33,002 nucleotides of DNA from Natronorubrum thiooxidans (GTDB lineage: Archaea; Halobacteriota; Halobacteria; Halobacteriales; Natrialbaceae), in assembly GCF_900156475.1 (NCBI RefSeq), contig NZ_FTNR01000022.1:1-33002 (forward strand), read 5' to 3'. How positions within the stretch are numbered: position 1 is the stretch's first letter; each line of letters opens with the position of its first letter. A program made the position numbers and the translations under genes. Under the pieces are notes generated by a model, which saw nothing but the letters and a program-made list of their open reading frames with translations, was not told the origin of the DNA and made no database searches. Below, in pieces: positions 17,482 to 33,002 of the stretch.

Positions 17482-18399
17482 TTACGACCAGTTATCGAGA
17501 TTCATTTGTTCTGAAGTCGTCGTTGACACTCTGTTTGAGAGATCACTTACGTTTTGAATGATAGTGGTTTTTTCTGATTGTTGAAAGGTTTCTAACCCGT
17601 CACTCGGTTCAATACCGAGGCCAGGTGGTGGGGCGAACACGGGCCGGTCTTGTTCAAGTGCCATTTCGTACTGGGCCATGGTGCCACCGCTTCCATCAGT
17701 GGCAACGAAGATCATGCCGTCACTCAGAGCAGCGATGAGTTCGTTCCGGTTAAGAAATGAGTGGCGAGTTGGTTCTGCGTCCGGTGAACGCATTGAGACG
17801 AGTAGTCCGCCTGTGTCGATGATTTGGTCGAATAGGGATTGATTCTCTGGTGGATATGCAACGTTGACGCCCGTCCCAAGAACGGCGATTGTTGAATTAC
17901 TTGCCTCAAGCGCACCTCGATGTGCCGCTGTATCAGCGCCGCGTGCTCCGCCACTAACGACCGCGTATCCTTCATCGACTAACGCTGACGAGAGCGATTG
18001 GATCCACTGCCGGCCTATTTCGTTGGTCTCACGTGCTCCCGAGACGCCGACCGTCGTTTCGGTAAGCAACTCAACGTTCCCCTTCGCATACATGAGAACT
18101 GGTGCTGGCCCGTTACGAACGACATCCGGATACTGATCGTCTTCGATCCCGAGAACGGTGATGCCGTCAGATTCGTACGCGTTGAACTGGTTACAGTATG
18201 ACTCGAGTTCTTCGTCGAGCGACCGGATTTCGGCGAGCGTGCTGGCATCAACATAGTGGAATTCATCAGCTAGGGATTCCGGTGCATCGAGGAGACCCGA
18301 TGGATCATCGAAGTAGGTGTACAGATCGTAGGCTCGTGCGTCGCCGATTCCGGAAAGATCGGTTAGGGCGGCTAGTATCGCTTTATCAGTGGCTTTCAT
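17482..18399 (-). CDS. dprA: DprA/Smf-family DNA-processing protein
   Basis: The 305-residue product has a short N-terminal HhH-like segment (LTDLSGIGDARAYDLY, residues 12-27) and the DprA Rossmann-type (SLOG) domain: VGVSGARETNEIGRQW, VVSGGARGADTAAHRGAL (149-160 core), IAVLGTGVNVAYPPENQ and NRNELIAALSDG. In bacteria DprA loads RecA on incoming single-stranded DNA. A nucleotide-sensing role of the SLOG fold is an alternative. The ATG at 18399 overlaps the TGA of the large upstream gene (ATGA), so the pair is translationally coupled; a longer frame from 18501 would overlap that gene extensively and is rejected. Confidence 0.88.
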   Translation of the reverse strand: MKATDKAILAALTDLSGIGDARAYDLYTYFDDPSGLLDAPESLADEFHYVDASTLAEIRSLDEELESYCNQFNAYESDGITVLGIEDDQYPDVVRNGPAPVLMYAKGNVELLTETTVGVSGARETNEIGRQWIQSLSSALVDEGYAVVSGGARGADTAAHRGALEASNSTIAVLGTGVNVAYPPENQSLFDQIIDTGGLLVSMRSPDAEPTRHSFLNRNELIAALSDGMIFVATDGSGGTMAQYEMALEQDRPVFAPPPGLGIEPSDGLETFQQSEKTTIIQNVSDLSNRVSTTTSEQMNLDNWS

Positions 18400-21300
18400 C
18401 GTTTTAGCCCCGCAATTATCTCCGACGCCGGAGTTTCCGGGTCGGTGATTTCTTTCACGTTTTCTCGTGGGCCACCGGGTGTAAGACCGAGAGTGAGACA
18501 AGCAACTCGATCAGCGCCGGCTTGGCGGAGGAGGTGGGCCCCCGCGAGGAGCGAGCTTCCGGTGGTGCAGATATCGTCGAACAGGATCACCGTGTCACCG
18601 TTGAGTTTCGCCCGCGCTCGTAACGACGCGGATGGTTCGACGGCGACGCGCTGACGTTCATCTTTTGATTTCTCCCGCTGTCGTTCAACGGTTTCCGTTC
18701 GCTCAAGGAGCGGCGTATAGAGGATATCCGTCTCAAGTACAGCATCCTGTGCCAACTCCACTAATTGTGGGCTAAGTGAACCTGCCTCGTGTCCAGGGAA
18801 GACAGTGATGTAATCGTAGTCCCACGTATCGAGGAGGAAACGGCGATGAAGGAGATCTTGTAGTCGCGGCCGAAAAACGTCTATCGGGTCGTTCTCGCCG
18901 TGCTTTGCAAGGGCTTTGAGCGCCTCAAAACTCGGTGAGTCTGATCGATACCAGTCCAATGCGAAGACATTCAAGGATCTACTCGCTGGTGAGTCTGCCG
19001 GAGGAGCCACCCGTCTAAACAGATGTGAGAGTCGTCCGAAGTCCAAGAGCGTTGACTCCGCTTCTGTGGTTGATGTTGGTGTGGCAGCAGGAACTGGTCC
19101 AGTTGGTGGTGAGGATTCAGTCGCAGTAAGTGAAGTGAGATCAGCTTGGTGTTCTCTGCTCAGATCTTCGAAGCATGTTTGATAGATTTCGGCGATAGGG
19201 ATCGTTCGGGTGTTGATTCCATTCTCGGTTGGGAGTGGTGGATATGCTGGGAAGGTAGCAAGTCGGTTCAAGGCCTCCTGCAGTTCCTTGAACGAACCTG
19301 GGAGTTCCGGTAGGGGGTAGTTCGTGCCCGGTACGCAAGGTCGGACAAACTCTCTGGTTGTCTTCACGCTCGCCTTTTCATAGAGAAGGTCGTGTGTATC
19401 GTCACCGAACGGTTCCACATTGGTTACTTGATAGTCCGTTACTGTTTCAGCGTCTCCGAACACTTTGCGGTAATCCCGAATGCTGAATGGGAGTCTGTCT
19501 TGATGCTGTGGCCCGTAACCAGCAAACGAGGTCGAGATATCGCCGAATCCTATACACGCATCCAGCAAGACATAATACTGGACACGCGGATCTCTTCGAT
19601 CATCGGGATCAATGTCAATCCTAGGGATCTGGAAGACGAGTTCTAAAACTCTTTTCGCACTTCGGAATGACTCATAGTACTCTGAAAGGTAGTTTACAAA
19701 GACTGTACCACCCCCAGGCACCGTAAATGTCTCTGGACTCGGAACAGGTAGTTCCGACGGAGTGAGGATTCCTTGTTCGTCATCACTCGTTTCTGACATC
19801 GCTTCTCTCGCAGTCCCCTTCGGCCCAGTAGTCGATTCAGCACTTGTCAGATTAGACTGATTCTCCTCCGTTTTCGCACTCTCTTCCCTACTCGAGGAAT
19901 TCCAGTCATTATTACTTTTTATAGGGGATTCTTGTGTGGTACTGAGAAGCTGGTCTGCTACTTGTTTATTATCAGGGTCTAAGGAGGACAAATTTCCTGC
20001 TTCTGCAGCCTCTTGGAGGCGTTGTATCTGCTGGATAGAGAAATCAGATCTAGCGGACAGCTCATGAGGTGCGGCTGCTTGTAGCTCCTCAATGGTTGTG
20101 ATACCTGCCTCAACGAGAGTCTGACCACTACTAGGGCCAACACCGTAAACTGCAAAGAGCCCTTCCCCCCGTAACATCTCTGTGAGATACCGCCGTACAT
20201 ACTTGATGGCTGTATCGTGAGAACACCCCGAAGACATCAATCGATTGACTGCGTCTTCGATATCTGTGGCATCAAGTGTGGTCGCTGCTGCAAGCGAATC
20301 AACGTCCCATCCGCTTGACGATGGGATTTGGTTTTGATGGGTTTTCTCTTGATTTTCCACCGCCGTTCGTTCGTCATACACTCTGACGATAGCTGCACGG
20401 TCGGAGATTATCTGCTGGATATCGTTCTTGGATATGCTATTTCCATCACGTGTACCAATGATTTCTATGATGACAGCAGCATCATGCAGGTCCTTTCCGA
20501 GAAGCGCTGAGTCAACATCTTCAGCTGTTGCATCCGAGGATAAGTTAATTTGAAACCCGGAGACGGGGCGGGCATCGATTTCATGTGCTGTTACATCGAT
20601 CGCACCGGCAGTGACGTGATATTCGAAGAAAACCGGTGTTCGGGGTTGAGTTTTGATTTGTCTCTTACCAATGATTCGTTCAGGCATTCCCGGAGAGAGT
20701 ATTTGGATCCCTGACTCTGACGTACGGATTGATTCGGTTCGGTTTCCGATCAGAACGGCGTCAAGAGATAATTCGAGTGTGTCCTCTAACTCTGTCACAT
20801 CTTCGCTGTCAGTAGCTATCGAGACCGCATCTGAAAGCGCTACGAGATGACTAGTGGTATCGTCTGGTTGGGTTGGATTGATCTCTGAAAGCGGTGGAGA
20901 ACTTGCGCCGTACGAAAATATACCGATATCTGAGACCGTGTGCCACCCAGTTTGTGGACCTGTGAGTAGCCCTTCAGACTCTAATTCTTGAATTATTTTT
21001 GAGGTGCGTGTAGCATCGCGTTCTCCACGGACTAAGATGAACTCAACTTGGTTATCATTCAATTTGTGAAGTAATCGCTTGCATTCTTTGATGATTCGCT
21101 TGTCTGGATGTTGAGACCAGAATAAGTTACCAGTATGAATGAGGGCTCCGACTTCGCTTGTACACGCATAATCAACGATTTCTTTAAATGAGTTCACGAA
21201 ATCATTCTGCCGCTCCTGGCGGCCCATATTTTTCCGGTCAAGATGTGTGTTAGTTGTATGTAATATTGACACTTCTTCACTAGAGTGACTCTGTCTGGGG

Positions 21301-22223
21301 AGAATTATTTCATTGTCCCCAGACTGTCCAGTCTTTTCAGTCTCGATGATCCCCTTCGCAGCCTCTGGATTAGCTCCAGTAAAGATGGGATCCTTAACAT
21401 TAGTATTGGTGAAAATAGCATCCGATAATTCCGCGTCAGTGAAATTAGTTCTGAATAATGACAGTCCAGTGAGATCTGCGGTTCTTAAGTCTGAATTCTT
21501 AAGCGATATTTTTGAAACGGTGCAGTCTGTCAGGTCTACACCACGAAGGTCAGCGTTTGAAAGATTTGAATAGCTGAGGTAGACATCAGTCAAATTAGCA
21601 TTTTGGAAATCAGCACCACTGAAATCAACAGCTGTTAGAACACTACCTGTTAGTTCAGCGTTCCGTAGCACAGCTCCAGATAACAACTCTCGTGGAGAGG
21701 CGTTTAGTTTCCGATTTTCAGGTTGTTCTCGTACTTCAGCGAGTGCTTCAGGAGGCTTTGTTATGTCTGTCTCAGCATGCCAAATACACCGATCAAAACC
21801 CCGCCATGTATTTCGATAGCAACAATGTGGACGGCTTTCAGGATTGTTTTGCTTATCAGGAATCCAAGTGAATCCACAGCGGTCTGTCACAGAATCTACA
21901 TATACTGCTTCTGAGCCAGAAACATCACTCTCGGCAGTTTCAGATTGAACTTTTTCCGCGGTAGTCCGTTTAGTCGCACTCAGTTCGGTAGTTGAAGACC
22001 ATTTCTTCACTAACACATTTTCGAGCTGATACCATTCACCGTCCTCCCAATCAACATCTGTTGCAGGGCTTCCCTCCCAAACAATGAAATTCACTTCTTC
22101 TGAAGAGCCCACACACACTTTAAACTTGAAAACACGCCGTCCTCCTCCAGCGCCAAGATCTTCGTTTATTTTCACCAATAGTGATACAGAGTCATTATGA
22201 TTATACTGTTTGAGACCTCCCAT
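18396..22223 (-). CDS. Giant multidomain protein: OB-fold, Cys/His, pentapeptide repeats, Mre11-like, HhH, PRTase
   Basis: One unbroken frame of 1275 residues is seen. The order is: an OB-fold-like segment (about 10-85); a Cys/His segment (about 115-150: CGFTWIPD, HCCYRNTW, DRCIWH); pentapeptide repeats (about 178-295: SGADFQNANL, SNADLRGVDL and others); an Mre11-like phosphoesterase domain with altered metal residues (Asn325, Asn366, Glu401); a helix-hairpin-helix pair (VYGVGPSSGQTL, about 692-735); an acidic linker; and a ComF-like phosphoribosyltransferase (VILFDDICTTGSS from 1212, the PRPP loop). The ATG at 22223 is preferred: the frame stays open to a GTG at 22307, but those 28 codons are partly IS5-element sequence. 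The end overlaps dprA by four bases. The overall function is unknown; action on DNA, possibly uptake or defence, is inferred. Confidence 0.8.
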   Translation of the reverse strand: MGGLKQYNHNDSVSLLVKINEDLGAGGGRRVFKFKVCVGSSEEVNFIVWEGSPATDVDWEDGEWYQLENVLVKKWSSTTELSATKRTTAEKVQSETAESDVSGSEAVYVDSVTDRCGFTWIPDKQNNPESRPHCCYRNTWRGFDRCIWHAETDITKPPEALAEVREQPENRKLNASPRELLSGAVLRNAELTGSVLTAVDFSGADFQNANLTDVYLSYSNLSNADLRGVDLTDCTVSKISLKNSDLRTADLTGLSLFRTNFTDAELSDAIFTNTNVKDPIFTGANPEAAKGIIETEKTGQSGDNEIILPRQSHSSEEVSILHTTNTHLDRKNMGRQERQNDFVNSFKEIVDYACTSEVGALIHTGNLFWSQHPDKRIIKECKRLLHKLNDNQVEFILVRGERDATRTSKIIQELESEGLLTGPQTGWHTVSDIGIFSYGASSPPLSEINPTQPDDTTSHLVALSDAVSIATDSEDVTELEDTLELSLDAVLIGNRTESIRTSESGIQILSPGMPERIIGKRQIKTQPRTPVFFEYHVTAGAIDVTAHEIDARPVSGFQINLSSDATAEDVDSALLGKDLHDAAVIIEIIGTRDGNSISKNDIQQIISDRAAIVRVYDERTAVENQEKTHQNQIPSSSGWDVDSLAAATTLDATDIEDAVNRLMSSGCSHDTAIKYVRRYLTEMLRGEGLFAVYGVGPSSGQTLVEAGITTIEELQAAAPHELSARSDFSIQQIQRLQEAAEAGNLSSLDPDNKQVADQLLSTTQESPIKSNNDWNSSSREESAKTEENQSNLTSAESTTGPKGTAREAMSETSDDEQGILTPSELPVPSPETFTVPGGGTVFVNYLSEYYESFRSAKRVLELVFQIPRIDIDPDDRRDPRVQYYVLLDACIGFGDISTSFAGYGPQHQDRLPFSIRDYRKVFGDAETVTDYQVTNVEPFGDDTHDLLYEKASVKTTREFVRPCVPGTNYPLPELPGSFKELQEALNRLATFPAYPPLPTENGINTRTIPIAEIYQTCFEDLSREHQADLTSLTATESSPPTGPVPAATPTSTTEAESTLLDFGRLSHLFRRVAPPADSPASRSLNVFALDWYRSDSPSFEALKALAKHGENDPIDVFRPRLQDLLHRRFLLDTWDYDYITVFPGHEAGSLSPQLVELAQDAVLETDILYTPLLERTETVERQREKSKDERQRVAVEPSASLRARAKLNGDTVILFDDICTTGSSLLAGAHLLRQAGADRVACLTLGLTPGGPRENVKEITDPETPASEIIAGLKR

Positions 22224-22271
22224 TGATCTAGACAGAATTAATTCCAAGAAGATAACCTTAATGGCAGAAAG

Positions 22272-22919
22272 GGCTGTGTTGAATCGCCATACGGCGTTGG
22301 ATTTCACTGCTTGACGGCCTGCTTGATGTTATAGACGACACATATCAAGGCGATTTCACGGAACTCTCGATACCAGGTACGCGCTCGCACGGCGTAGCCG
22401 AGCGAGCGCTTGATAGATGAGTTGACAGCTTCGGCCATTGACCGCTGAGCGTACCGATCTTCGTCAATGCGGGCGTTGTGTGCGTGATCGTACGGCGCGA
22501 AGATCCGGTGTTTGATCAGCGGGCGAATGTCGAGTTCACGCAGTCGTTCTCGGAGTTGTTGCTTGTCATAGCCTTTGTCAGCGGCAAGTGACCGCAGATC
22601 GCCCGCATTCCGGCGGGCGATCTGCTCGGCGAGGTCTGCGTCGCTTCCTTCTAACGTCGTCGAACAGTGGAGATCAAGAACGGCTTGCGTTGCTGTATCG
22701 ACGAGTTTTGTGATTTTGAGCGTTTGAACGCGGTAATTCGTTCGTTGGCAGTAATGGCGGCTCGCACGATCACGTTCATAGAATGTTGCGTCGATAGCAG
22801 CGTGTTCGGATGGATCGTGTAACTGCGCCGATTGGCGCAGCAACACTCGACAGACGCTCATACTGATCCGGTCGAACGCCTTACATAATGTGGATGGTGA
22901 GGGGAGATCGGCCGCGCTG
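22272..22919 (-). pseudogene. IS5-family transposase, 3' half (copy A)
   Basis: The minus strand encodes the C-terminal two-thirds of an IS5-family DDE transposase, from AADLPSPSTLCKAFDRI through IDATFYERD (catalytic Asp), LAADKGYDKQ (Asp) and AEAVNSSIKRS (Glu) to the stop at 22304. The terminal repeat GGCTGTGTTGAATCGCCAT lies at 22272. The 5' third is replaced by the IS630 element at 22920. The outer end lies less than 50 bases upstream of the giant gene. Confidence 0.9.
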
Positions 22920-24131
22920 AGTGTAGCTTCAAGCCTGAATCTGTAGATCCTCTTCAATCTCAATTGGGTAGAGCTGGCGTAGCTTGATCCGGGCGTCGTC
23001 AGTAGTAAACTGCCAGTCGATGGGACGATTGGTCGTGTTTCGACGCCTTTGCCACGCAGCGACCTCCGCTCGGAGGGTCGCTGCGTGATAGATCCGATGA
23101 TAAAGACACTATCGTTTGAGGACACCTATTTCGATTTCAGCCATATTCAGCCAACTTCCTCTCTTGGGAGTGTAGTGAAACTCGAACCGATCAAGATACG
23201 CTTGAGCAGAATCTGGTGGGAAGAACTGGTAGAAGGCAGTAGGCTTGTGGGTGTTGAGTTGATCCATCACAACCCGGATGCAGTCCGCATCCGGGTAGTG
23301 GATATCTGCGAGTTCGACCATTCGGTCGATCCATTCTGTCGTCCGTCTCTTCTCGGTAATTTCGACGTTTACCCAGCCAGTCAACGGTTCTGTCGAGAGG
23401 TGGAGTCGCTTTTTGCCGTTTCGTTTGTAGCGGTGATCGGAACGAGCGACCGCTCCCGGTCGGGCCGGGAGCGGGTCGCGTTCGTGTCCTCGTAGCGCCT
23501 TGCTAGATTCGTCAAAACAGATGACTGGACGCTTCTCGTCGTACGGTTCGTGGTAGAGATTGAGAACATCTTCCATATAGTAGACGAAGTCAGCGTCCTG
23601 TTCTGGTGGTATCTCCCAGTAGCTGGAGAGATGAGGTTTTAGAGCGTTTTTTAGCCGCTGTCGGACGGCCTCGTGAGAGATCGACTCGAAGTCGATCTCG
23701 TCGAGGGTAACGAGTTCGTCGGCAAGGAGGTGGAGTGTCCATCGAGAGTGTCCTTCTGGCGGTTCGCTGCAGGCGAGTTTGATGAGGTGGGCTTCGGCGT
23801 TGCCATCGAGTTTGCGTTCGTACTCACGGTCAGGTTTGCGGCGATGAATCGCCGCAATCCCTCGTTCAGTGTAGTCTTTGCGTGTGTTGTGGACGGTTTG
23901 GGGATGACAGTCGACGTGCTCACTGATTGTCGCATCAGTGAGCCCGTCGTCAGCTTTCAGAAGGATTCGTGCGCGTGTGTTGTCTTGGGCTCTCCGTTCA
24001 CTGGTAGAGGTGAACTATTCGAGCGTCTTGCGGTCTTCGTCGCTGAGTTCAACAATATATTTCTTCCCTCCCATTCAGTAAGAGACGCGCTCAGAGAAGA
24101 TACGTTAGACGTTCACTGTTGAAGCTACACT
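22920..24131 (-). mobile_element. IS630-family insertion sequence
   Basis: The element is bounded by perfect 13-bp inverted repeats, AGTGTAGCTTCAA at 22920-22932 and TTGAAGCTACACT at 24119-24131. It is about 1.2 kb and contains a single transposase frame on the minus strand. It is flanked on both sides by 3' halves of an IS5-family element in opposite orientations, which a simple insertion cannot produce. Because neither flank has its original partner, the target duplication cannot be judged. Confidence 0.85.
22929..24074 (-). pseudogene. IS630-family transposase with two internal amber codons
   Basis: The frame runs from ATG at 24074 to TGA at 22929, 381 codons, without a frameshift. It begins with an HTH region (SDEDRKTLE, then ISEHVDCHPQTVHNTRK) and continues with the DDE domain: ICFDESSK (Asp), CIRVVMDQLNTHK (Asp) and GSWLNMAEIEIGVLKR (Glu). 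TAG codons interrupt it at 24017-24015 (after TLE) and 23111-23109 (after VLKR). Relatives appear to have Gln at these places, so both look like CAG-to-TAG changes. A 155-residue internal fragment (23576-23109) with all three catalytic residues could still be translated. Confidence 0.85.
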
Positions 24132-24775
24132 GAGGCCGATCTCCCCGCACCATCTACGCTGTGTAAGGCGTTTGACCGGATCGAAATGAGCGTCTGTCGA
24201 GTGTTGCTGCGCCAGTCAGCGCAGCTACACGATCCATCCGAACACGCTGCTATCGACGCAACATTCTACGAACGAGATCGTGCGAGTCGCCACTACTGCC
24301 ACCGAACGAATTACCGCGTTCAAACGCTCAAGGTCTCAAAACTCGTCGATACAGCAACGCAAGCCGTTCTTGATCTCCACTGTTCGACGACATTAGAAGG
24401 CAGCGACGCAGACCTTGCCGAGCAGATCGCCCGCCGGAATGCGGGCGATCTGCGGTCACTTGCCGCTGACAAAGGCTATGACAAACAACAACTCCGAGAA
24501 CGACTGCGTGAACTCGACATTCGCCCACTGATCAAACACCGGATCTTCGCTCCGTACGATCACGCACACAACGCCCGCATTGACGAAGATCGATACGCTC
24601 AGCGGTCAATGACCGAAACCGTCAATTCAGCCGTCAAGCGCTCGCTCGGCTACGCCGTGCGAGCGCGTACCTGGTATCGAGAGTTCCGTGAAATCGCCTT
24701 GATGTGTGTCGTCTATAATATCAAGCAAGCCGTCAAACAGTGAAATCCAACGCCGTATGGCGATTCAACACAGCC
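24132..24775 (+). pseudogene. IS5-family transposase, 3' half (copy B)
   Basis: This is an inverted near-duplicate of copy A. It reads EADLPAPSTLCKAFDRI, IDATFYERD, LAADKGYDKQ and TETVNSAVKRS, then ends with the same terminal repeat at 24775. The frame begins directly at the IS630 end without its N-terminal third. The missing 5' part of the same family is found at 31828-32055 in the same orientation. Confidence 0.9.
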
Positions 24776-24849: not shown

Positions 24850-25548
24850 TCACTCTCGGCTGATCTCTGGATTCTCAAACTTGTCCGATCGGAAGTAATA
24901 GACGTACCCCCCAAGGCCCAAGATAGAAAGCACGACTAGGACGTTCTGCGGCTTAATGTCGGGCAGCAATCCGAGTATCCCAGGATCAGTACCACTCTTT
25001 ACGTAGATCCGTTCTGGCGGTTGTTCATCCTCGCTCACAGTCCACTTCGCGGTTTGATCGTTATTTTCTAAAGTATCCGCATTCGAGTCGTGGATCTGAC
25101 CGGGCATATCTACAGTGTACGTTAACTCGACGTCATTGATCCTATACGACGAATCTAGCGCATCCACGTACGTCACGTTCCCGTCCGTTTCCGTCACGTT
25201 GATTCGGGAATCTTCACCGGGTGTGAACTCCTGTAGGGTGAGCGTGATCGTAGTTTCGCTACCTTCCGTGGATCGATCGCAGGATGCCTCTTCATAGTTT
25301 GATTCATTGTAAGCGTCCTTTGCAAACTCGCAGACGGTGTCATACCCCTGCTGTTCTGTCTGCCCACTCACTTGAGAAAACGTTTCTTGAGGCATTGATG
25401 CGACCACTTTGTGCGTCTCGATAGTCCCGCTCGAATCAACTGTAGAGGATGCGGTTATCGACGCACATCCGGCGAACAAGACCAAAACGCTAACTGCGAC
25501 AACTGTAATGACGAGTCGCTTATTAGATGACTGTGGATCTTCGAGCAT
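24850..25548 (-). CDS. Membrane-anchored lipoprotein, LppM-like
   Basis: The 232-residue protein has a signal peptide (hydrophobic residues 12-27) ending in a lipobox LFAGC with Cys28. A beta-rich extracellular domain with many Thr, Ser and Asp residues follows, and near the end a transmembrane helix (NVLVVLSILGLGGYVYYF), leaving a short cytoplasmic charged tail. This layout matches haloarchaeal DUF3153/LppM-like proteins, whose role is unknown. It is divergent from the small gene at 25639 and may belong to the envelope-associated module that follows. Confidence 0.7.
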   Translation of the reverse strand: MLEDPQSSNKRLVITVVAVSVLVLFAGCASITASSTVDSSGTIETHKVVASMPQETFSQVSGQTEQQGYDTVCEFAKDAYNESNYEEASCDRSTEGSETTITLTLQEFTPGEDSRINVTETDGNVTYVDALDSSYRINDVELTYTVDMPGQIHDSNADTLENNDQTAKWTVSEDEQPPERIYVKSGTDPGILGLLPDIKPQNVLVVLSILGLGGYVYYFRSDKFENPEISRE

Positions 25549-25638: not shown

Positions 25639-25920
25639 ATGGAACCTGATCGTGTCGATACGGGGGACAGGGGATCATTCTCCCCCCAGAAGATCAACCC
25701 TGAAGAATTCGAGAATGCACGTGTTAGAAATCGAGTCATGCGAAGAGTGGTGGATCTGTGTGAAGCTGATCCTGAAGTAAGGGCGATGCTTCTCACTCCC
25801 TTCATTGAGTTGAAAGAGAACACAGGGCAGGACTATTCTGATCTCCGGGACGATATCTCGGAAGCTTCTCCTGCGGAGATTGAGCAGCGACTGCGTGATA
25901 TCCCCAACAGCACCGGATAG
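25639..25920 (+). CDS. Small acidic protein, unknown
   Basis: This 93-residue protein has no recognised domain. It is predicted to be mostly helical after residue 20 (ENARVRNRVMRRVVDLCEAD, then EIEQRLRDI). It starts at an ATG after a 90-base gap from the divergent lipoprotein gene and is followed 16 bases later by the tailed acidic protein, so the two are probably one transcript. Its job may be as a partner or chaperone of the next protein, but nothing in the sequence proves it. Confidence 0.6.
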   Translation: MEPDRVDTGDRGSFSPQKINPEEFENARVRNRVMRRVVDLCEADPEVRAMLLTPFIELKENTGQDYSDLRDDISEASPAEIEQRLRDIPNSTG

Positions 25921-25936
25921 ATCTTGCGAAAAGGGG

Positions 25937-26764
25937 GTGATAACCGAAGAGAAAATGGCCGAAGTCAGAGACCACATTGAGAACGATCCTCAGCTGAGAG
26001 AAGATTGGGGTCTTGATGGGCCGCAGGTAGTTGCCGAGGAAGAACAGAAACTCTGTGCGACGCATAGATCTCCTGTTCGGCCGCGGGTTGCCGATGAACA
26101 ACAGACTCAAACGCAAAGTCGTGAGAATGCGTACTCTGAAGAAAAGGATTCAAACGTAGGAACAGATACAGCGGTGAAAGCTGAAACAGGGGCCGCGTTC
26201 ACAGATTCAACAACAGTTGGTGCCGAGCAGGGGAATTCAACAACAAGTGGGAGAACAGGTTACGATTGTTCGTCCGGAGACCCTACGTGTCCGCTGAATA
26301 GACGTGCTGCCCTGAACGAGATGGAGTTCCATTCCGCGACGAATAATCACAGCGAAGACTCGCTCCGTGATCGATGGGAACGACACGGGGAACAGACGAG
26401 TGAAACAGAGACCGAAGATAATCACGATCATAACCATGACCACAACCATGCACCCGCGGACAATGAAGATCGTGAAGACCAGACGGAGAAAACCCCGAAC
26501 GAAGGTGAGGACGATGCTCTCCGTGCAGATGACGTAGAAAATCAAAATGAGGGCGCACAAGCCAGCGAAGATACGAATGAGGGTATTAGTCCTGACGACA
26601 CACAGTCTATACAGAGTGGTGAGGGAAACAGCGAAGATGAGAACGAGGGCATCAGTACTGCTGATACTCCAAATGGCAATGATTCTGGCAATGCCGGTGA
26701 TGGGGAAAATGAAGGTGAGGAGAAGGATAAAAATCTGAATCAGTCGAATATGCGCCTCTTCTGA
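25937..26764 (+). CDS. Acidic protein with His-rich segment and shared C-terminal tail
   Basis: The product is about 275 residues, strongly acidic and largely disordered. An N-terminal helix (TEEKMAEVRDHIENDPQLRE) is followed by a low-complexity stretch, a small Cys-containing patch (YDCSSGDPTCPLNRR), and a His-rich run (DNHDHNHDHNH) that could bind metal. The last ~90 residues, from NEGEDDALRADDV to LNQSNMRLF, are shared with the metallo-beta-lactamase-fold protein at 29449 and contain repeated NEG-x-S-x-DD-like units. GTG at 25937 is taken as start; ATG at 25955 is equally possible, and the frame is open upstream to a TTG at 25880. It lies just before the VirD4-like ATPase gene. It may be a substrate or adaptor of that ATPase. 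Confidence 0.65.
   Translation: MITEEKMAEVRDHIENDPQLREDWGLDGPQVVAEEEQKLCATHRSPVRPRVADEQQTQTQSRENAYSEEKDSNVGTDTAVKAETGAAFTDSTTVGAEQGNSTTSGRTGYDCSSGDPTCPLNRRAALNEMEFHSATNNHSEDSLRDRWERHGEQTSETETEDNHDHNHDHNHAPADNEDREDQTEKTPNEGEDDALRADDVENQNEGAQASEDTNEGISPDDTQSIQSGEGNSEDENEGISTADTPNGNDSGNAGDGENEGEEKDKNLNQSNMRLF
26498..26764 (+). repeat. Tail-coding repeat, copy 1 (inverted relative to 29449-29711)
   Basis: This DNA encodes the shared acidic tail. Its first ~40 bases and last ~35 bases are nearly identical to the minus strand of 29449-29711, while the middle is more diverged and has small length differences. The two copies are inverted and flank the ATPase gene. Confidence 0.8.
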
Positions 26765-26856
26765 TAGGGACCAGCAGACTAGTTCATAGTCTCTCTCGTC
26801 GTGCGGTTTTCCCAGCAGGCTGTTTTCCTCGTGAGATCCTCTGAATATCCACGCTG

Positions 26857-26880
26857 ACCCCTATGAGAAGGGGTTTCTTG
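26857..26880 (+). terminator. Candidate transcription terminator after the tailed acidic protein gene
   Basis: ACCCC-TATGAGAA-GGGGT forms a 5-bp GC-rich stem with an 8-base loop, followed by TTCTTG. It lies about 90 bases past the stop codon and before the promoter of the ATPase gene. Confidence 0.4.
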
Positions 26881-26956
26881 ACGTGACGGATTTGCCAAGT
26901 AGTGACAGATCTCCAATAAATACTCAAGTAACCATCATTACTGGAAACCGGACTAA

Positions 26957-26992
26957 TGCTTAGTATTATAATTCAAGTATAATGTCTAAGCA
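26957..26992. promoter_or_regulatory. Long imperfect palindrome upstream of the VirD4-like gene
   Basis: TGCTTAG...CTAAGCA are perfect 7-bp arms extended inward by TATTATA and TATAATG, with one bulged base and a 7-base centre. It ends 42 bases before the ATG and just before the TATA-like element, a natural operator position. Confidence 0.45.
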
Positions 26993-27000
26993 GAAACCCA

Positions 27001-27010
27001 ATTATATATT
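27001..27010 (+). promoter_or_regulatory. TATA box of the VirD4-like gene
   Basis: ATTATATATT lies 25 bases before the ATG at 27035. Standard archaeal spacing would place the transcription start at or near the ATG, consistent with a leaderless message. Confidence 0.5.
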
Positions 27011-27034
27011 ACCATTCAGGAATGTCTTCTACAT

Positions 27035-29401
27035 ATGGTATTATATAGTAGTGTCAATTTAGGAACAAACCTACTGTTCATTGATGGATTCGCACAAGTA
27101 GCAGCCGGTGCCGGACTAATTCCAATCGCACTAGCTGTCCTTGCATTCTTCATCCTCGCTGGGATACTCATCTTCGGAAACCCGAAGTCCCTGTTCGTCA
27201 AAGCACTTCAGTTGAAAAGTTACAAGCAGGTCTACCGGGATCTGAAAGAGTACTACGGGGGACGGACAAGTTATCCGCAGGATAAGAAATCCATCCTCGC
27301 AACGTACGCACTCGGAGGTGGATTAACCGTCCTTGTCTCGGTCGCAGTTCTCTTCCCACCGCTGATGATCCTGTACCCGCTCATCCTTCCTGTTCTATTC
27401 GGGTACTACGTGCGTGAACTCAGTTGGATCATTCACGCTGAACACGATAAGACCCTTATCGAAGAACCATTCCCCGAAGACCGGCCTGCATTCGGCGATA
27501 TCCCGTCAATGACCGTTGATGGGATTAAGGCGATCGGCTTGCTGGTCATGTACATCGGTGCATCCTTTGTAGCAGGGTATCTTGTGACCGCCGTGCTTCA
27601 CATCGGCTTGTCGTTCCGGAGTGCTGCCAGTGGTGGACTGATCGCCAGTGGACTCGTCCTCATCGGCGGCGCGTATGTCCTTCCTGCCTTCTTAGCACGG
27701 TACGCTCACGAAGGAACGCTTAGTGATGCACTCACCCAGCCAATTGACTTCTTAGAACCGATTGTGAAGGATGCAACGTACTTCCGAGAAGTGCTTCTCG
27801 GAACGTTCGTCATCGGTGCATCTTACCTCACGATCCTCGCTGTTGCGTGGGTCTCACCACTCCTCATGCCGGTCGTGTGCTTCCCTGTGATCTTCATTGC
27901 CACTCTACAGGGCCTGGATCACTATGCACGCGGATACAGCGCTGCAGTCGGTGTGAGATACGACGATGATACGCTCACTATTGATGACGACTCGTATGCA
28001 CTGCCCCTCCGCGGCGGAGGCGTTATCACGCCTGATCGCGACCGATCTATCCTTGCACTCGGTGAAACCGGGTCAGGGAAAACGGAAGCGATCAAGCTAC
28101 TCGCCTACCAGTTCAACACAACTGACGACACGCCGTTTATCGCGTTTGACTACAAAGACGACTACAAGGAGTTCTTCGGACAAGCACCTGCCATGGCTGA
28201 CGGTGGGGATACCGAAGATACTGGCCGTGCAGCGCAGTCCCCAGTCTCGAACAACGTCATCATCCTGTCCTTAGAAGATTCCACGTACATCTGGAATATC
28301 TTCGAAGAGGTTCGAGACGAGTCTGAATTCGAAGAGATCGGCCGTGCGATCTTTGCTAGTGAAGCAGAAGAGTCGAATAATCCGTACTTCCCACGTGCTG
28401 CTCAGCAAGTGTTCATCGCACTTCTTAAAGCCATTAACCGTGTCAAAGATGATCCGTCCAACAAGGCGCTTATAGACACGTTCGAAAAGAACAGCAAGGA
28501 AGAGTTATACGAGATCATCGCTGGCTTTGACGAGTTAAAAAGCGCGGCTGCTCATCTCGACCCAGATGCCGGCGAGCAAAGCGCCGGTGTGTACGGCCAC
28601 CTGCAGACAATGGTGGGCGAGATTTTCAAAGGTGATTTCCGGAAGAAAGGCGACTTCAGCATCCGGGACTACATCGAAGATCCAGACGGGAAAACACTGA
28701 TCCTAGACTTCCCACTGGACCGTGGGGATAGCGTCAAGCCGGTGTACCGTCTGTTCATCGACTGGTCGATCCGCCACGGTCTCGCTGCTGACGACCGTGA
28801 TACGTACTACCTGCTCGACGAGTTCCAGACCGTCCCTGGTCTAGAACGGATCGAGCGACTGGTGAACGCTGGTCGAGCTCAGAACGCGTATGGTATCATC
28901 GGGCTGCAGAGCAAGGCTCAGTTAGAAGGTACGTACGGTGAGGCAGACGCATCTTCAATCCTATCCGGGTTCACACAGGAACTGTTCCTCCGTGTTGGCG
29001 ACGAAGCCAGCATTGAATACGTCCGTACACGAACTGGCCGCGTTCGGAAGGAACGCCTCACCCAAGGTCCAAACACATGGATGGGGCGAAACCTGACCGG
29101 CCGCAGCGTCGTGTTCAACCAGACTACGACCGAAGAAGAGTACCAGATTTCCGAAGAAGAGATCCAGCGATTCGATCCTGGCGAAGCGATCGTCATGCAG
29201 CGGAACGGATGGCGACAGGGCAAACTGCACATGCTGGAAGAAGTACAGGACGAAATCGATCAGTGGAAGGATCGTTCTTCCAGCAATGATGACACTGGCG
29301 ATAGGAAGACAGGTACTACGCTGTCTAAAGACAAAATTGGAGGGACATCAGAAAGTGGTACAGGACCCATACCGGAAGAAAAGGCCACTGTTGACGATTA
29401 A
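27035..29401 (+). CDS. Polytopic VirD4/TraD-like coupling ATPase
   Basis: The 788-residue protein has two parts. Residues 1-300 are membrane-spanning, with about six to eight hydrophobic segments (first near 28-48, a pair near 90-128, others near 165-300) that resemble haloarchaeal DUF4013-type domains. Residues 325-745 form a FtsK/VirD4/TraD-type ATPase: Walker A GETGSGKT at 343-350, Walker B YYLLDEFQ with LLDEFQ at 593-598, and a TraD-like NAGRAQNAYGIIGLQSKAQL sensor region. The C-terminal 50 residues are a flexible Ser/Thr/Gly tail. Coupling proteins bring DNA or protein substrates to a transfer channel. No relaxase or VirB4 gene is in the window, and the flanking genes encode tail-sharing proteins, so protein transport is an attractive inference. 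Confidence 0.85.
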   Translation: MVLYSSVNLGTNLLFIDGFAQVAAGAGLIPIALAVLAFFILAGILIFGNPKSLFVKALQLKSYKQVYRDLKEYYGGRTSYPQDKKSILATYALGGGLTVLVSVAVLFPPLMILYPLILPVLFGYYVRELSWIIHAEHDKTLIEEPFPEDRPAFGDIPSMTVDGIKAIGLLVMYIGASFVAGYLVTAVLHIGLSFRSAASGGLIASGLVLIGGAYVLPAFLARYAHEGTLSDALTQPIDFLEPIVKDATYFREVLLGTFVIGASYLTILAVAWVSPLLMPVVCFPVIFIATLQGLDHYARGYSAAVGVRYDDDTLTIDDDSYALPLRGGGVITPDRDRSILALGETGSGKTEAIKLLAYQFNTTDDTPFIAFDYKDDYKEFFGQAPAMADGGDTEDTGRAAQSPVSNNVIILSLEDSTYIWNIFEEVRDESEFEEIGRAIFASEAEESNNPYFPRAAQQVFIALLKAINRVKDDPSNKALIDTFEKNSKEELYEIIAGFDELKSAAAHLDPDAGEQSAGVYGHLQTMVGEIFKGDFRKKGDFSIRDYIEDPDGKTLILDFPLDRGDSVKPVYRLFIDWSIRHGLAADDRDTYYLLDEFQTVPGLERIERLVNAGRAQNAYGIIGLQSKAQLEGTYGEADASSILSGFTQELFLRVGDEASIEYVRTRTGRVRKERLTQGPNTWMGRNLTGRSVVFNQTTTEEEYQISEEEIQRFDPGEAIVMQRNGWRQGKLHMLEEVQDEIDQWKDRSSSNDDTGDRKTGTTLSKDKIGGTSESGTGPIPEEKATVDD

Positions 29402-29448
29402 ATAAGGGAACATTCTTCCTTCCTTTGATTTAACCAGGAGGAATACTT

Positions 29449-29711
29449 TTAGAAAAGATACCTGTTCGACTGATTCAGATCGTTGTCTTTCTCCTCAGCA
29501 TTCTCTCCACTGGATCCGTCAGTATCAACATCATTCGGAGCGTCATCAACGCTGACCCCTTCGTTGACATCCTCCTCATTGCCTTGTCCGGTGTTCACGC
29601 CGGTTTGTGTGTCGTCAGCACTGATCCCCTCGTTCGTGCCTTTTCTCTCTTGTATGCTCTTGTCCTGTCTCTGTACGTCATCTACACGGAGTGCATCGTC
29701 CTCACCTTCAT
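29449..29711 (-). repeat. Tail-coding repeat, copy 2
   Basis: This is the partner of 26498-26764, encoding the shared acidic tail of the metallo-beta-lactamase-fold protein. Both proteins end at the same alignment point, with LNQSN-x-x-LF immediately before the stop. Confidence 0.8.
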
Positions 29712-30903
29712 CTGCAGGATTATCATTAGTGTAGGCCCTTGATTCCTCCATAGTGAGTTCCTGGGACTTATCCTCACTGGTAGCACTATCGTCTGTACCA
29801 GAAGTCGTCGGTTCTAAGTGAGCCTCAGGACTCCCTTTCTCTAACCGTTCCTCCGAGCCCGTATAGTCAATTTGTTCTTCTGTATCCTCTATTTCTGGTG
29901 TCTGTTCTTCGCTCAGGCGATCTTCAACGACTTCACCGGGTGTCTCCCCATTGGATAGGCTGCTTTCATAGATATCTCCGTGACGGTCTGTGTGATAGAC
30001 GTCACAGTTAACGTCTGATCCCTCAACAGCGGCCATCGTCAACTTGTTTGGATGTCCCCAATCCATGTGTTCTGGATCGGAGGAAACAACAAAATTGTCC
30101 GGATCAGCCTGCTCAAGATAATCAATACTGAGGTCGTCAGCTACTGCATCGAAATCCTCTCTGGTGGTGATACTGTCGTCGATTTCTTTCTTATCAGCGT
30201 CTGCACTGAGCCCGAGTTGATCTCTCGTATCCTCCGATAATATCTCTGCAAGTGGTGTCTCATCTGCTTCCGCTGGATCAACCTCTTGTTCACGAAGTTT
30301 CTGTTCAGGGATATTCTTCGTGTCAAAGTTATTTCGACTTCCGTGGTGAGGAGCAACGACAGTCTCAGCGTCCCTGAGGAACTCATCATCAATCCTAGCT
30401 AATTGATCAGGTGTTGAATCACCTAAAATCACTGTTTCATTCCCTCGGGATCCAACACGTGCCACCAACCCGTCGTTATTTGCAATAGGAGTGTCTTCGT
30501 GCGGGACATCATATTTGACTGGTCCTTCTTGCCCGAATGAATCGACCCTCTTCACCTCAGTAGTCCGATTTTCAGCAGCTCTATACACCTGTTGAAGGTG
30601 CTCTCCTGGCTCCCCTGGGCTCAAATCGTACAAGTTCTCGTTAGGGCCGTATAACCGGTCAATTTCAACATCGTCAGATTTGACCAGTTTTTTCATACCG
30701 GCTATATGATCACTATGACCGTGGGTAATGAATGCAGCGTCGATTGTATTACCATCTAATTCACTTTTGATATCGTCTACATGGCTTGCACGGTCAGCAT
30801 CAATCAAATACGTCTTATCCCCGTCACTGATACACGTAGCACTCGCCTGTTTGACATCGATATGAACAATATCCCACCGTTTATCACTCCTCTGTGTTGT
30901 CAT
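29449..30903 (-). CDS. ComEC-like metallo-beta-lactamase-fold protein with shared C-terminal tail
   Basis: The product is 484 residues. Residues 10-290 form a metallo-beta-lactamase domain like the C-terminal domain of ComEC: THGHSDH at 60-66, VILGDSTPDQL, then VVAPHHGSRNNFD (HHGS at 186-189) and a final DWGHPNKL with YHTDRHGDIY. The metal ligands look intact, so hydrolase or nuclease activity is plausible. An acidic disordered linker leads to a tail from DEGEDDALRVDDV to LNQSNRYLF, shared with the protein ending at 26764. No signal peptide or membrane segment is seen, so export would need another route. It overlaps the upstream small gene by 20 bases and converges on the ATPase gene. Confidence 0.82.
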   Translation of the reverse strand: MTTQRSDKRWDIVHIDVKQASATCISDGDKTYLIDADRASHVDDIKSELDGNTIDAAFITHGHSDHIAGMKKLVKSDDVEIDRLYGPNENLYDLSPGEPGEHLQQVYRAAENRTTEVKRVDSFGQEGPVKYDVPHEDTPIANNDGLVARVGSRGNETVILGDSTPDQLARIDDEFLRDAETVVAPHHGSRNNFDTKNIPEQKLREQEVDPAEADETPLAEILSEDTRDQLGLSADADKKEIDDSITTREDFDAVADDLSIDYLEQADPDNFVVSSDPEHMDWGHPNKLTMAAVEGSDVNCDVYHTDRHGDIYESSLSNGETPGEVVEDRLSEEQTPEIEDTEEQIDYTGSEERLEKGSPEAHLEPTTSGTDDSATSEDKSQELTMEESRAYTNDNPADEGEDDALRVDDVQRQDKSIQERKGTNEGISADDTQTGVNTGQGNEEDVNEGVSVDDAPNDVDTDGSSGENAEEKDNDLNQSNRYLF

Positions 30904-31261
30904 CTCTAATCACTTGTTCAACGTATTCGTCATAGATTTCAGTGAGCTCTGGATCGAATTGAAGACCGAGTATATGCTGATCACTCTCTACCTTCCCGGA
31001 AGCATACTCGGTGCTGAATATGCTGAACTCCCCGTCTCCGTGTGGAACAACACGGAAAATTGTTCTGCCTCTATACTCGTCTGGGACTTCCTCTTCGTAT
31101 TGATATGCCTCGATAACAATATCCATCTCAAAGTCCTCGCCTGGCTCGGGTCGTGCATCGTATATCCCGAACGTCGCCACGCCTTCTTCGAATTCTTCTA
31201 TCCGGGCGATACGCACCTTCTCGTCTGATTCAGCATCTGGAGAAATCCATCCGTCAGGCAT
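30884..31261 (-). CDS. Small acidic protein coupled to the metallo-beta-lactamase-fold gene, unknown
   Basis: This is a 125-residue soluble acidic protein with alternating hydrophobic and charged residues suggesting a beta-rich fold (KVRIARIEEF, FEMDIVIEAYQYEEE, TIFRVVPHGDG) and a C-terminal helix (ELTEIYDEYVEQVI). No family is recognised. Its last 20 bases overlap the start of the metallo-beta-lactamase-fold gene, so both are made together. An antidote or chaperone for that protein is a reasonable guess from gene order only. Confidence 0.65.
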   Translation of the reverse strand: MPDGWISPDAESDEKVRIARIEEFEEGVATFGIYDARPEPGEDFEMDIVIEAYQYEEEVPDEYRGRTIFRVVPHGDGEFSIFSTEYASGKVESDQHILGLQFDPELTEIYDEYVEQVIRDDNTEE

Positions 31262-32078: not shown

Positions 32079-33002
32079 CATCCGTCTTTAGTTAGGCGCA
32101 AAACCGCACGATAGCGGCGGCTTATCGGAGTTACTTTTCGGAAGGAATGAGGAGGCGGAAGATGTGCACTCTAACCCCTCCTCACACGAAGTGGAACGCC
32201 ATCTCACTAACTTCCTTCCATCTGAAGCGCTCGAAGACCACGCCGATGCCGTCGGCGTGGTCGAGCGCGATCGGAAGCTGCAGATTCCACCGCTCGTCTG
32301 GTCATTTGCGTTCGGCTTCGCCGGCGGCGCAAGCCGAACGCTCGCCAGCTTCAGACGGAGCTACAACTCGACTGCAGACAAGACATTGTCCGCAGGAGGC
32401 TTCTATCAGCGGTTGACGCCGACTCTCGCAGAGTACCTCCGCGACCTCGTCGAGTATGGGCTCGACGAGGTCGCTGTCCCCCACACCGTCTCAGAGGAGT
32501 TCAACCGATTCAGAGACGTGATGATCGCAGATGGAACGGTTCTCCGGCTCCACGAGTTGCTTGCTGAGGAGTATGAAGGTCGCCGTGAGGAGCAGGCTGG
32601 AGCACGGCTCCACCTGCTCCACAACGTCACTGAGCAGACGATCGACCGGTTCAGCGTCACAGACGAGAAAAGACACGACAGTACGCAGTTCGAGACAGGA
32701 TCGTGGCTCGAAGATCGGCTAGCGATCCTCGATCTGGCCTATTTCAAGTACCGGCGGTTCGCGTTGATCGACGAGAACGACGGCTACTTCGTGAGTCGAC
32801 TGAAACGCAGCTCTAACCCGGTTGTAACCGACGAATTACGGGAATGGCGCGGCCGCGCCATTCCCTTGGAGGGGAAGAAAATCTTCGACGTCGTGGACGA
32901 TCTCTGCCGCAAGTACATCGACGTCGAAGTTGAGATCGAGTTTGACCGGAGAGAGTACGCGGGCACGCAGTCACGTGATACGAAACGGTTCCGCGTCGTC
33001 GG
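32079..33002 (+). mobile_element. ISH8-like insertion sequence (IS4 family), right copy, cut by window edge
   Basis: This is the second ISH8-like copy, inverted relative to the one at 1-845. It begins with CATCCGTCTTTAGTTAGG, matching the outer end of the left copy, and runs off the window. The two copies are similar but clearly diverged, so they are separate arrivals or an old duplication. Confidence 0.85.
32164..33002 (+). CDS. ISH8-like transposase (IS4 family, DDE), C-terminus outside window
   Basis: The frame is open from GTG at 32164 to the edge, about 279 residues, with no stop. It carries FRDVMIADGTVLRLHE, EEQAGARLHLLHN, KYRRFALIDENDGYF, WRGRAIPLEG and DTKRFRVVG. The GTG start corresponds to the one at 761 in the left copy; a second in-frame GTG at 32191 is an alternative. 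An ATG at 32162 is out of frame. The visible part appears intact. Confidence 0.85.
   Translation, partial: MHSNPSSHEVERHLTNFLPSEALEDHADAVGVVERDRKLQIPPLVWSFAFGFAGGASRTLASFRRSYNSTADKTLSAGGFYQRLTPTLAEYLRDLVEYGLDEVAVPHTVSEEFNRFRDVMIADGTVLRLHELLAEEYEGRREEQAGARLHLLHNVTEQTIDRFSVTDEKRHDSTQFETGSWLEDRLAILDLAYFKYRRFALIDENDGYFVSRLKRSSNPVVTDELREWRGRAIPLEGKKIFDVVDDLCRKYIDVEVEIEFDRREYAGTQSRDTKRFRVV

What the first reader, a model, noticed from the sequence alone, without database searches (positions are those of the whole stretch)
25639..31261. Possible archaeal secretion or transfer module: VirD4-like ATPase between two proteins sharing one C-terminal tail
Seen: a polytopic ATPase with VirD4/TraD motifs lies between two otherwise unrelated proteins. 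One is disordered with a His-rich run; the other has a ComEC-like metallo-beta-lactamase fold. Their last ~90 residues are homologous, with repeated NEG-x-S-x-DD units and a common LNQSN-x-x-LF end. Known: coupling ATPases of type IV systems recognise C-terminal signals on substrates. Inference: the tail is a sorting tag, the enzyme is an effector or DNA-processing substrate, and the 125-residue and 93-residue proteins are an antidote or chaperones. No relaxase or VirB4 is present in the window.
Basis: partly seen in the sequence, partly recalled or inferred. Interest (0 to 1): 0.88.

Follow-up and report, generated by a model that had tools for sequence, protein, structure and literature searches.

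The report
Archaeal VirD4 module with matching tails
In a salt-loving archaeon, a membrane pump of the kind that feeds DNA or proteins into transfer machines sits between a DNA-cutting enzyme and a partner protein that end in the same tag; a second genus has the same gene set with a different shared tag, which suggests an undescribed tag-guided archaeal machine.

Summary
A TrwB/VirD4-family membrane ATPase (27035-29401 +) lies between a mostly disordered protein (about 25937-26764 +) and a ComEC-type metallo-beta-lactamase nuclease (29449-30903 -). Their last ~88 residues are 58% identical (z 23 over shuffles); the bodies are unrelated. The tail occurs on no other gene of this genome. Its end signature is absent from the other 391 Halobacteriales genomes scanned.

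The main new result is an independent parallel. Halocatena marina carries the same set: an h550 protein homologous to the window's 'disordered' one, DUF3006 proteins, MBL and VirD4. There too h550 and MBL share a C-terminal tail, of unrelated sequence (z 8). Among 3255 nearby gene pairs, such sharing between unrelated bodies occurred only at these loci. Tails evolve under purifying selection. Most VirD4 relatives elsewhere serve NikA plus relaxase; this group has no relaxase. Relatives of the nuclease mostly carry lipoprotein signals; the VirD4-associated ones carry none.

Best reading: the tail is a locus-specific docking tag that brings nuclease and partner to a relaxase-less VirD4. Docking to VirD4 and export are inferred. 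No VirB4 was found, so a membrane-bound DNA-processing or defence complex remains a serious rival. A new variant of a known kind.

The parts
25639..25920 (+). 93-aa acidic/helical protein; no family; may be a partner of the next gene
   Evidence: no Pfam hit, only a chance-level NCBIfam match, no PHROG hit; not demonstrably homologous to the h550 N-terminus (z 1.0)
25937..26764 (+). h550-like partner protein (start GTG 25937 or ATG 25955): conserved N-terminal half (ITEEKxxEVxxxIENDPxxxxxWG, C..H, C..RRA..FH, W-E), His-rich run, disordered acidic linker, shared tail
   Evidence: homologous to Halocatena h550 proteins: blastp E 3.9e-12, z 7.9, alignment A7
26498..26764 (+). C-terminal tail, copy 1 (88 aa): NEG-x-S-x-DD units, ends LNQSNMRLF
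   Evidence: 58% identical to copy 2; unique in the genome and its end signature unique in 392 genomes
27035..29401 (+). VirD4/TrwB-family membrane ATPase, 788 aa, extended N-terminal membrane part (DUF4013-like)
   Evidence: Pfam, TrwB structures, tree with relatives
27362..27844 (+). DUF4013-like multi-TM region of the ATPase
   Evidence: Pfam E 6.3e-9; hydropathy
28040..29206 (+). TrwB/VirD4 ATPase domain: GETGSGKTE Walker A, YYLLDEF Walker B
   Evidence: Pfam PF10412 E 1.7e-38; invariant columns
29449..30903 (-). ComEC-type metallo-beta-lactamase nuclease-like protein, 484 aa, no signal peptide, with C-terminal tail
   Evidence: Pfam/NCBIfam, ComEC structures; THGHSDH, GD and HHG motifs conserved, but the ComEC-family GQGDS motif is degenerate (VKQASAT)
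29449..29712 (-). C-terminal tail, copy 2 (87 aa), ends LNQSNRYLF
   Evidence: dN 0.26-0.27 against dS 1.0-1.8 relative to copy 1
30884..31261 (-). 125-aa acidic protein, start of a two-gene operon with the MBL (20-base overlap); possible diverged DUF3006-type MBL companion
   Evidence: position matches DUF3006 next to MBL in relatives; similarity weak (z 2.7; no Pfam DUF3006 hit)

Best explanation
The module is a relaxase-less VirD4 system. A TrwB/VirD4-type hexameric membrane ATPase recruits two cytosolic proteins, a ComEC-type MBL nuclease and an h550-type partner, through a locus-specific C-terminal docking tag carried at the end of an acidic, disordered linker. The tag replaces the relaxosome (NikA plus relaxase) as the coupling protein's substrate signal. 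The most likely purpose is to move the nuclease, or nuclease plus partner, to or across the membrane: the nuclease's relatives mostly act outside the membrane as lipoproteins, and the VirD4-associated ones have no signal peptide. The small co-encoded DUF3006-type protein would be a cytosolic guard or chaperone of the nuclease. Shown: the parts, the shared tails, their selection, their recurrence with a different sequence in Halocatena, the conserved partner, and the absence of a relaxase and of signal peptides. Inferred: that the tag binds VirD4, that the cargo is translocated, that the nuclease is active, and that the small protein is its guard.
For: (1) Window tails share 58% identity with unrelated bodies. 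(2) In Halocatena marina the loci of two strains (L041, L121) have the same gene set, and h550 and MBL share a C-terminal tail unrelated to the window's (within-locus z 8.0, between-genus tail z about 0). (3) Among 3255 nearby gene pairs in about 45 loci, tail sharing above z 8 between unrelated bodies occurs only at the window, L041 and L121; the other hits are paralogues or shared domains. (4) The window tails show dN 0.26-0.27 against dS 1.0-1.8, and the Halocatena tails dN 0.32 against dS 2.0, so the protein sequence is maintained. (5) Tail A is on the MBL at all four loci with a clade-I VirD4 (L041, L121, L083, L122) and absent from the MBLs beside a clade-II VirD4 (L079) or no VirD4 (H. 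salina), although those two lie inside the tail-A group in the MBL body tree (moderate support). (6) h550 bodies without an MBL neighbour carry another tail B (L078, L123, L124), so the tail is modular. (7) Eight of nine MBL relatives away from VirD4 have a lipobox, against none of seven of the signal-less group, six of which adjoin a VirD4. (8) In relaxase loci the NikA adaptor ends in an acidic linker plus a short LxxLR-like motif (12 of 31 against 19 of 664). (9) The window VirD4 groups with the relaxase-less Halocatena clade (91/77).
Against: No VirB4 (PF12846) was found in this genome or in four Halocatena genomes, so no T4SS channel is known; only one family was tested. Docking of the tail to VirD4 has no direct evidence. 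The window's MBL and 125-aa genes are convergent to the VirD4 gene, not in one operon with it. Some Halocatena VirD4 genes stand alone without such cargo (L080, L081, L084). The window's MBL is very divergent and its GQGDS motif is degenerate. The window's VirD4 sits on a long branch, so its placement is weak. Independent instances of tail sharing number only two lineages. Tail-A monophyly on the MBL body tree is not rejected (p-AU 0.14). The NikA motif was noticed before it was tested.
Confidence: 0.45

Rival explanations
1. A membrane-bound DNA-processing or defence complex that secretes nothing. The TrwB-like motor handles DNA (incoming plasmid, viral or mating DNA), and the tag holds the ComEC-like nuclease and the partner on its cytosolic face, comparable in logic to HerA-nuclease or Lamassu systems.
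For: TrwB/VirD4 are DNA motors and the MBL is of the ComEC type that cuts incoming DNA. The MBL matches the PADLOC effectors LmuA (E 1.4e-11) and RTasMBL (E 4.7e-8). The window holds DprA plus ShosT/PsyrT-like PRTase, HNH, and a UvrD-type helicase 51% identical to one beside the Halocatena locus L122. No secretion channel was found.
Against: Relatives of the nuclease mostly carry lipoprotein signals, pointing to work outside the membrane. The PADLOC hits are superfamily-level. The partner h550 has no nuclease or ATPase signature.
Confidence: 0.27
2. The tails are docking tags, but for another shared partner or for each other (for example a scaffold joining MBL and h550), and VirD4 is adjacent for other reasons.
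For: No binding partner has been shown. Solitary VirD4s and VirD4-less HEAT+h550 loci exist, so the parts are partly separable.
Against: MBL+DUF3006 and HEAT+h550 recur beside VirD4s of two separate clades (L041/L083/L121/L122 and L079/L085). Tail A goes with clade-I VirD4 even where h550 is absent from the locus (L083, L122).
Confidence: 0.18
3. The shared tail is a neutral or salt-adaptive acidic extension copied between neighbouring genes by recombination and kept alike by gene conversion.
For: Acidic disordered ends are common in haloarchaeal proteins, and the two genes are neighbours.
Against: Nucleotide identity is only 68% with dN well below dS. No other neighbouring pair among 3255 shows it except at this kind of locus in another genus. 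The end motif is exact.
Confidence: 0.07
4. A decayed mobilisation (conjugation) module whose relaxase was lost.
For: Most VirD4 relatives sit in NikA-relaxase-VirD4 operons; transposase genes flank the module.
Against: VirD4, MBL and partner frames are intact. Halocatena keeps the relaxase-less set in several genomes with the same partners.
Confidence: 0.03

Closest known systems
Xanthomonadales killing T4SS (X-T4SS): VirD4 with XVIPCD-tagged effectors (PMC6536674)
   Same: A VirD4-family coupling ATPase; unrelated proteins carrying one shared C-terminal region of about 100 residues; a small gene beside the enzyme gene
   Different: XVIPCD is a ~120-residue conserved domain on many effectors across a genome, with a full VirB machine. 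Here the tail is on two proteins, is locus-specific, mostly disordered, and no VirB4 was found
Bartonella VirB/VirD4 with BID-domain effectors (PMC8714903)
   Same: C-terminal signal shared by unrelated N-terminal parts and tied to VirD4
   Different: BID is a folded domain and the machine a complete bacterial T4SS; sequence relation not tested, none expected
Haloarchaeal NikA-relaxase-VirD4 mobilisation operons (this study)
   Same: Same VirD4 family; the NikA adaptor often ends in an acidic linker plus a short hydrophobic motif
   Different: They have a MobA/VirD2-type relaxase and a NikA-like DNA-binding protein, no MBL or h550, and no shared tails
Exported ComEC-like MBL + DUF3006 pairs of haloarchaeal plasmids
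   Same: Same nuclease family and same small companion gene
   Different: A lipoprotein signal (8 of 9), sometimes a lamin-tail domain, no VirD4 within 5 kb, companion gene downstream instead of upstream
Lamassu LmuA (MBL type) and HerA-nuclease defence
   Same: Motor ATPase plus nuclease logic; weak MBL similarity (PADLOC)
   Different: No SMC-type LmuB, no HerA partner domain; a membrane-embedded TrwB-type ATPase instead

Membership tests
VirD4/TrwB coupling-protein family | N-terminal membrane segments plus TrwB-type AAA domain with Walker A/B and TraG-D_C region | tested here: met
VirD4/TrwB coupling-protein family | couples a relaxosome to a VirB-type channel | tested here: not met
   no relaxase/NikA near it; no VirB4-type PF12846 in the genome (one family tested)
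Type IV secretion system with C-terminally tagged effectors (X-T4SS-like) | one C-terminal signal on unrelated proteins | tested here: met
Type IV secretion system with C-terminally tagged effectors (X-T4SS-like) | VirB channel and ATPases encoded in the genome | tested here: not met
   limited to PF12846
Type IV secretion system with C-terminally tagged effectors (X-T4SS-like) | signal binds VirD4 and is needed for export | not testable with these tools
   needs binding and secretion assays
ComEC-type MBL nuclease | MBL fold with HxHxDH and HHG metal motifs, closest to the ComEC C-terminal domain | tested here: met
   GQGDS motif degenerate in the window copy
ComEC-type MBL nuclease | nuclease activity | not testable with these tools
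   needs an enzyme assay
DUF3006 (125-aa protein) | significant match to PF11213 | tested here: not met
   no match to it up to E 0.1; z 2.7 against H. marina DUF3006, 7 of 500 shuffles as high; only the position agrees
Archaeal conjugation/mobilisation module | relaxase beside VirD4 | tested here: not met
Lamassu defence | LmuA effector with SMC-type LmuB | tested here: not met
   no SMC-type gene seen among the window ORFs; only a weak LmuA-type MBL match

The most novel reading that the evidence does not exclude
A haloarchaeal protein-translocation system in which a stand-alone, relaxase-less VirD4 ATPase exports a ComEC-like nuclease and a companion protein by means of swappable, locus-specific C-terminal tags that co-evolve with the ATPase; to my knowledge no VirD4-dependent protein secretion has been shown in Archaea.
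Probability: 0.25. Interest if true: 0.87.

Novelty: new variant of a known kind. Interest (0 to 1): 0.63.

Why it matters
Coupling proteins of the VirD4 family are known as gatekeepers of bacterial conjugation and effector secretion; as far as I know, tagged protein substrates have not been shown for one in Archaea. A system in which two unrelated proteins share a tag, and the tag differs between lineages while the set of proteins stays the same, is a natural experiment on how such ATPases recognise cargo. The tag can be tested directly with peptides and the ATPase domain. If export is confirmed, it adds an archaeal protein-delivery route; if not, it is a new membrane-bound motor-nuclease complex.

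Tried and rejected
Tail as a widespread sorting signal: rejected; unique to this genome. Viral origin: P0003, P0002 and the VirD4 alignment found no relatives in viral contigs; PHROG hits are superfamily-level. P0002 found no plasmid record and only generic MBLs in 392 genomes. Single-protein scan of genome contigs found nothing; the alignment scan gave four Halocatena-type loci with names. AlphaFold models of the h550 domain and MBL core were poor (pLDDT 43 and 39), so no fold search was made. Tail B was found on h550 proteins only. The repetitive acidic end of the 602-aa protein at L085 is not shared with another protein. A crude test for hydrophobic ends on NikA proteins was not significant (p 0.11); the specific LxxLR-type motif was, but it was chosen after looking. 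Tail sharing between NikA and relaxase: none seen. The 93-aa protein as a split N-terminus of h550: not supported (z 1.0). The L100 pair in the tail-sharing control is a shared copper-protein domain.
Full report
WHAT IS THERE. The window is the whole contig C10 of a draft haloarchaeal genome of 4.2 Mb. The reported genes are present. The 788-aa protein is a VirD4/TrwB-family ATPase (TrwB_AAD_bind E 1.7e-38, TraG-D_C 2.9e-12; solved TrwB E 2.4e-20) with an N-terminal DUF4013-like membrane part. The 484-aa protein is a metallo-beta-lactamase whose family profile best matches ComEC nuclease domains (9ic4, E 5.9e-30). It overlaps a 125-aa gene by 20 bases. The upstream 'disordered' protein and the MBL share their last ~88 residues: 50 of 86 ungapped columns identical, z 23, 0 of 500 shuffles as high, bodies unrelated. 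The tail occurs on no other protein of this genome. Its end signature LNQSNxxLF-stop, searched as DNA, occurs twice in this genome and in none of the other 391 Halobacteriales genomes scanned.

THE SAME SET ELSEWHERE. A Halocatena marina plasmid (L041) encodes HEAT protein, 550-aa protein (h550), two DUF3006-type proteins, MBL and VirD4 in one row. A second H. marina strain (DFN5; L121) has the same. The window's disordered protein is homologous to h550 in its N-terminal half: blastp E 3.9e-12 over 190 aa, N-terminal z 7.9, conserved IENDP..WG, C..H, C..RRA..FH and W-E. In Halocatena, h550 and MBL also share a C-terminal tail (EAGEEGxRIxEEIxSxxIENGxGxS; z 8.0), which has no similarity to the window's tail (z about 0). 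So the set of partners is conserved while the shared tail is replaced in both partners.

CONTROLS. In 3255 pairs of genes at most five genes apart, in about 45 haloarchaeal loci, every case of tail sharing with z above 8 was a pair of paralogues or a shared domain (a copper-protein domain at L100), except the window, L041 and L121 (genes called by a simple script, 60 shuffles per pair). The window tails are 68% identical in DNA with dN 0.26-0.27 and dS 1.0-1.8; the Halocatena tails dN 0.32, dS 2.0. The dS values are near saturation, but selection on the protein is clear. Tail A sits on the MBL at all four loci with a clade-I VirD4 (L041, L121, L083, L122). It is absent from the MBL beside a clade-II VirD4 (L079) and from the H. 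salina MBL with no VirD4 nearby, although these two lie inside the tail-A group on the MBL body tree (monophyly not rejected, p-AU 0.14). h550 proteins without an MBL neighbour (L078, L123, L124) bear a third tail, B. The tail is therefore modular with respect to the body.

THE VirD4 FAMILY. In 392 Halobacteriales genomes 42 have relatives of this ATPase. In the tree of 40 rows, 19 sit beside a NikA-like RHH protein and a MobA/VirD2-type relaxase (families; neighbours), 3 have NikA only, and 18 have neither within the stretch seen (a few of these are at contig or stretch ends). The window's ATPase groups with a relaxase-less Halocatena clade (91/77), on a long branch. MBL+DUF3006 and HEAT+h550-like genes also occur beside a second VirD4 clade (L079, L085). 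NikA proteins in the relaxase loci often end in an acidic linker plus a short motif of the type LxxLR (12 of 31, against 19 of 664 other proteins, p 5e-10; motif chosen after looking, some rows near-identical). A general hydrophobicity test was not significant. Searches of 125 genomes of the window's family and 146 of the Halocatena family added relaxase loci but no third tail-sharing lineage.

WHERE THE NUCLEASE FAMILY WORKS. MBL relatives on haloarchaeal plasmids are followed by DUF3006 in all eight plasmid loci read, and in the second MBL locus of the H. salina plasmid. Eight of these nine have a lipobox; none has a VirD4 among the annotated genes within 5 kb. The seven signal-less ones include the window's, and six of the seven lie beside a VirD4. 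This suggests, without proving, that VirD4 stands in for the missing export signal.

MECHANISM. Shown: two proteins with unrelated bodies carry one selected C-terminal tail per lineage, in a conserved set with a relaxase-less VirD4. Inferred, in order of decreasing confidence: the tail is a docking tag; the receptor is the VirD4; the complex moves the nuclease to or across the membrane; the small protein guards it. Against export: no VirB4 family member (PF12846) in this genome or four Halocatena genomes. The main rival is a membrane-anchored motor-nuclease complex acting on DNA. In its favour are the ComEC-like nuclease, weak LmuA/RTasMBL matches, and the defence-like surroundings with DprA, PRTase, HNH and a UvrD-type helicase that recurs 51% identical beside L122.

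COMPARISON. It works most like the X-T4SS, where effectors bind VirD4 through a shared C-terminal domain (XVIPCD; PMC6536674), or Bartonella BID effectors (PMC8714903). It is not a member of either: no VirB machine was found, and the tail is short, locus-specific and found nowhere else. Searches of the open literature for haloarchaeal VirD4 with relaxase, for DUF3006 and for DUF4013/VirD4 returned no description of this module. The two papers opened (archaeal dark-matter islands, PMC4158269; polymorphic toxins, PMC3482391) do not describe it in the passages found.

LIMITS. Two lineages only. Gene calls outside annotated records are mechanical. Structure models failed. The 125-aa protein's link to DUF3006 rests on position. 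The window's MBL is divergent, with a degenerate GQGDS motif, so its activity is uncertain.

Noticed in passing
window 18396-22307 (-) and 17482-18501 (-): 1303-aa ORF joining pentapeptide repeats, Mre11-like phosphoesterase, HHH and phosphoribosyltransferase domains (ShosT/PsyrT-like in PADLOC), overlapping a DprA gene: looks like a ShosTA-type defence pair with unusual fusions.
   Followed up: no
window 14316-16478 (+) and L122:1095-3236: NERD/UvrD-type helicase 51% identical over 710 aa between the window and the Halocatena pleomorpha locus that holds DUF3006-MBL-VirD4; both have an HNH-type gene near.
   Followed up: partly
window 22304-24743 and 32164-33002: DDE transposase genes and fragments on both sides of the module; two copies of the same transposase at 22304-23125 and 24186-24743.
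   Followed up: no
L032, L035-L037, L040, L042, L043, L086, L094, L095, L098, L186: NikA proteins of haloarchaeal relaxase operons end in an acidic linker followed by a short LxxLR-like motif, others in WYF/WSF/DDLL-like ends: candidate docking peptides for VirD4.
   Followed up: partly
L080, L081, L084: VirD4 genes without recognisable cargo on Halocatena contigs; at L080 and L084 (and L082, which has cargo-like neighbours) a conserved chromosomal place beside a 527-aa serA-like gene.
   Followed up: no
L122, L045, L082, L041, L121: Several VirD4-type cargo candidates of Halocatena end in GxSL/GSSV (MBL L122 ..GSSL, H. salina MBL ..GFSL, L082 427-aa ..GTSL, h550 ..GSSV): possible minimal end motif, untested.
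   Followed up: no
window 24850-25548 (-): LppM-like lipoprotein gene divergent to the module start; relation unknown.
   Followed up: no
L147:3707-4438: A DUF4013 gene next to an exported MBL+DUF3006 pair in Halococcus dombrowskii; DUF4013 is also the membrane part of the window's VirD4.
   Followed up: no
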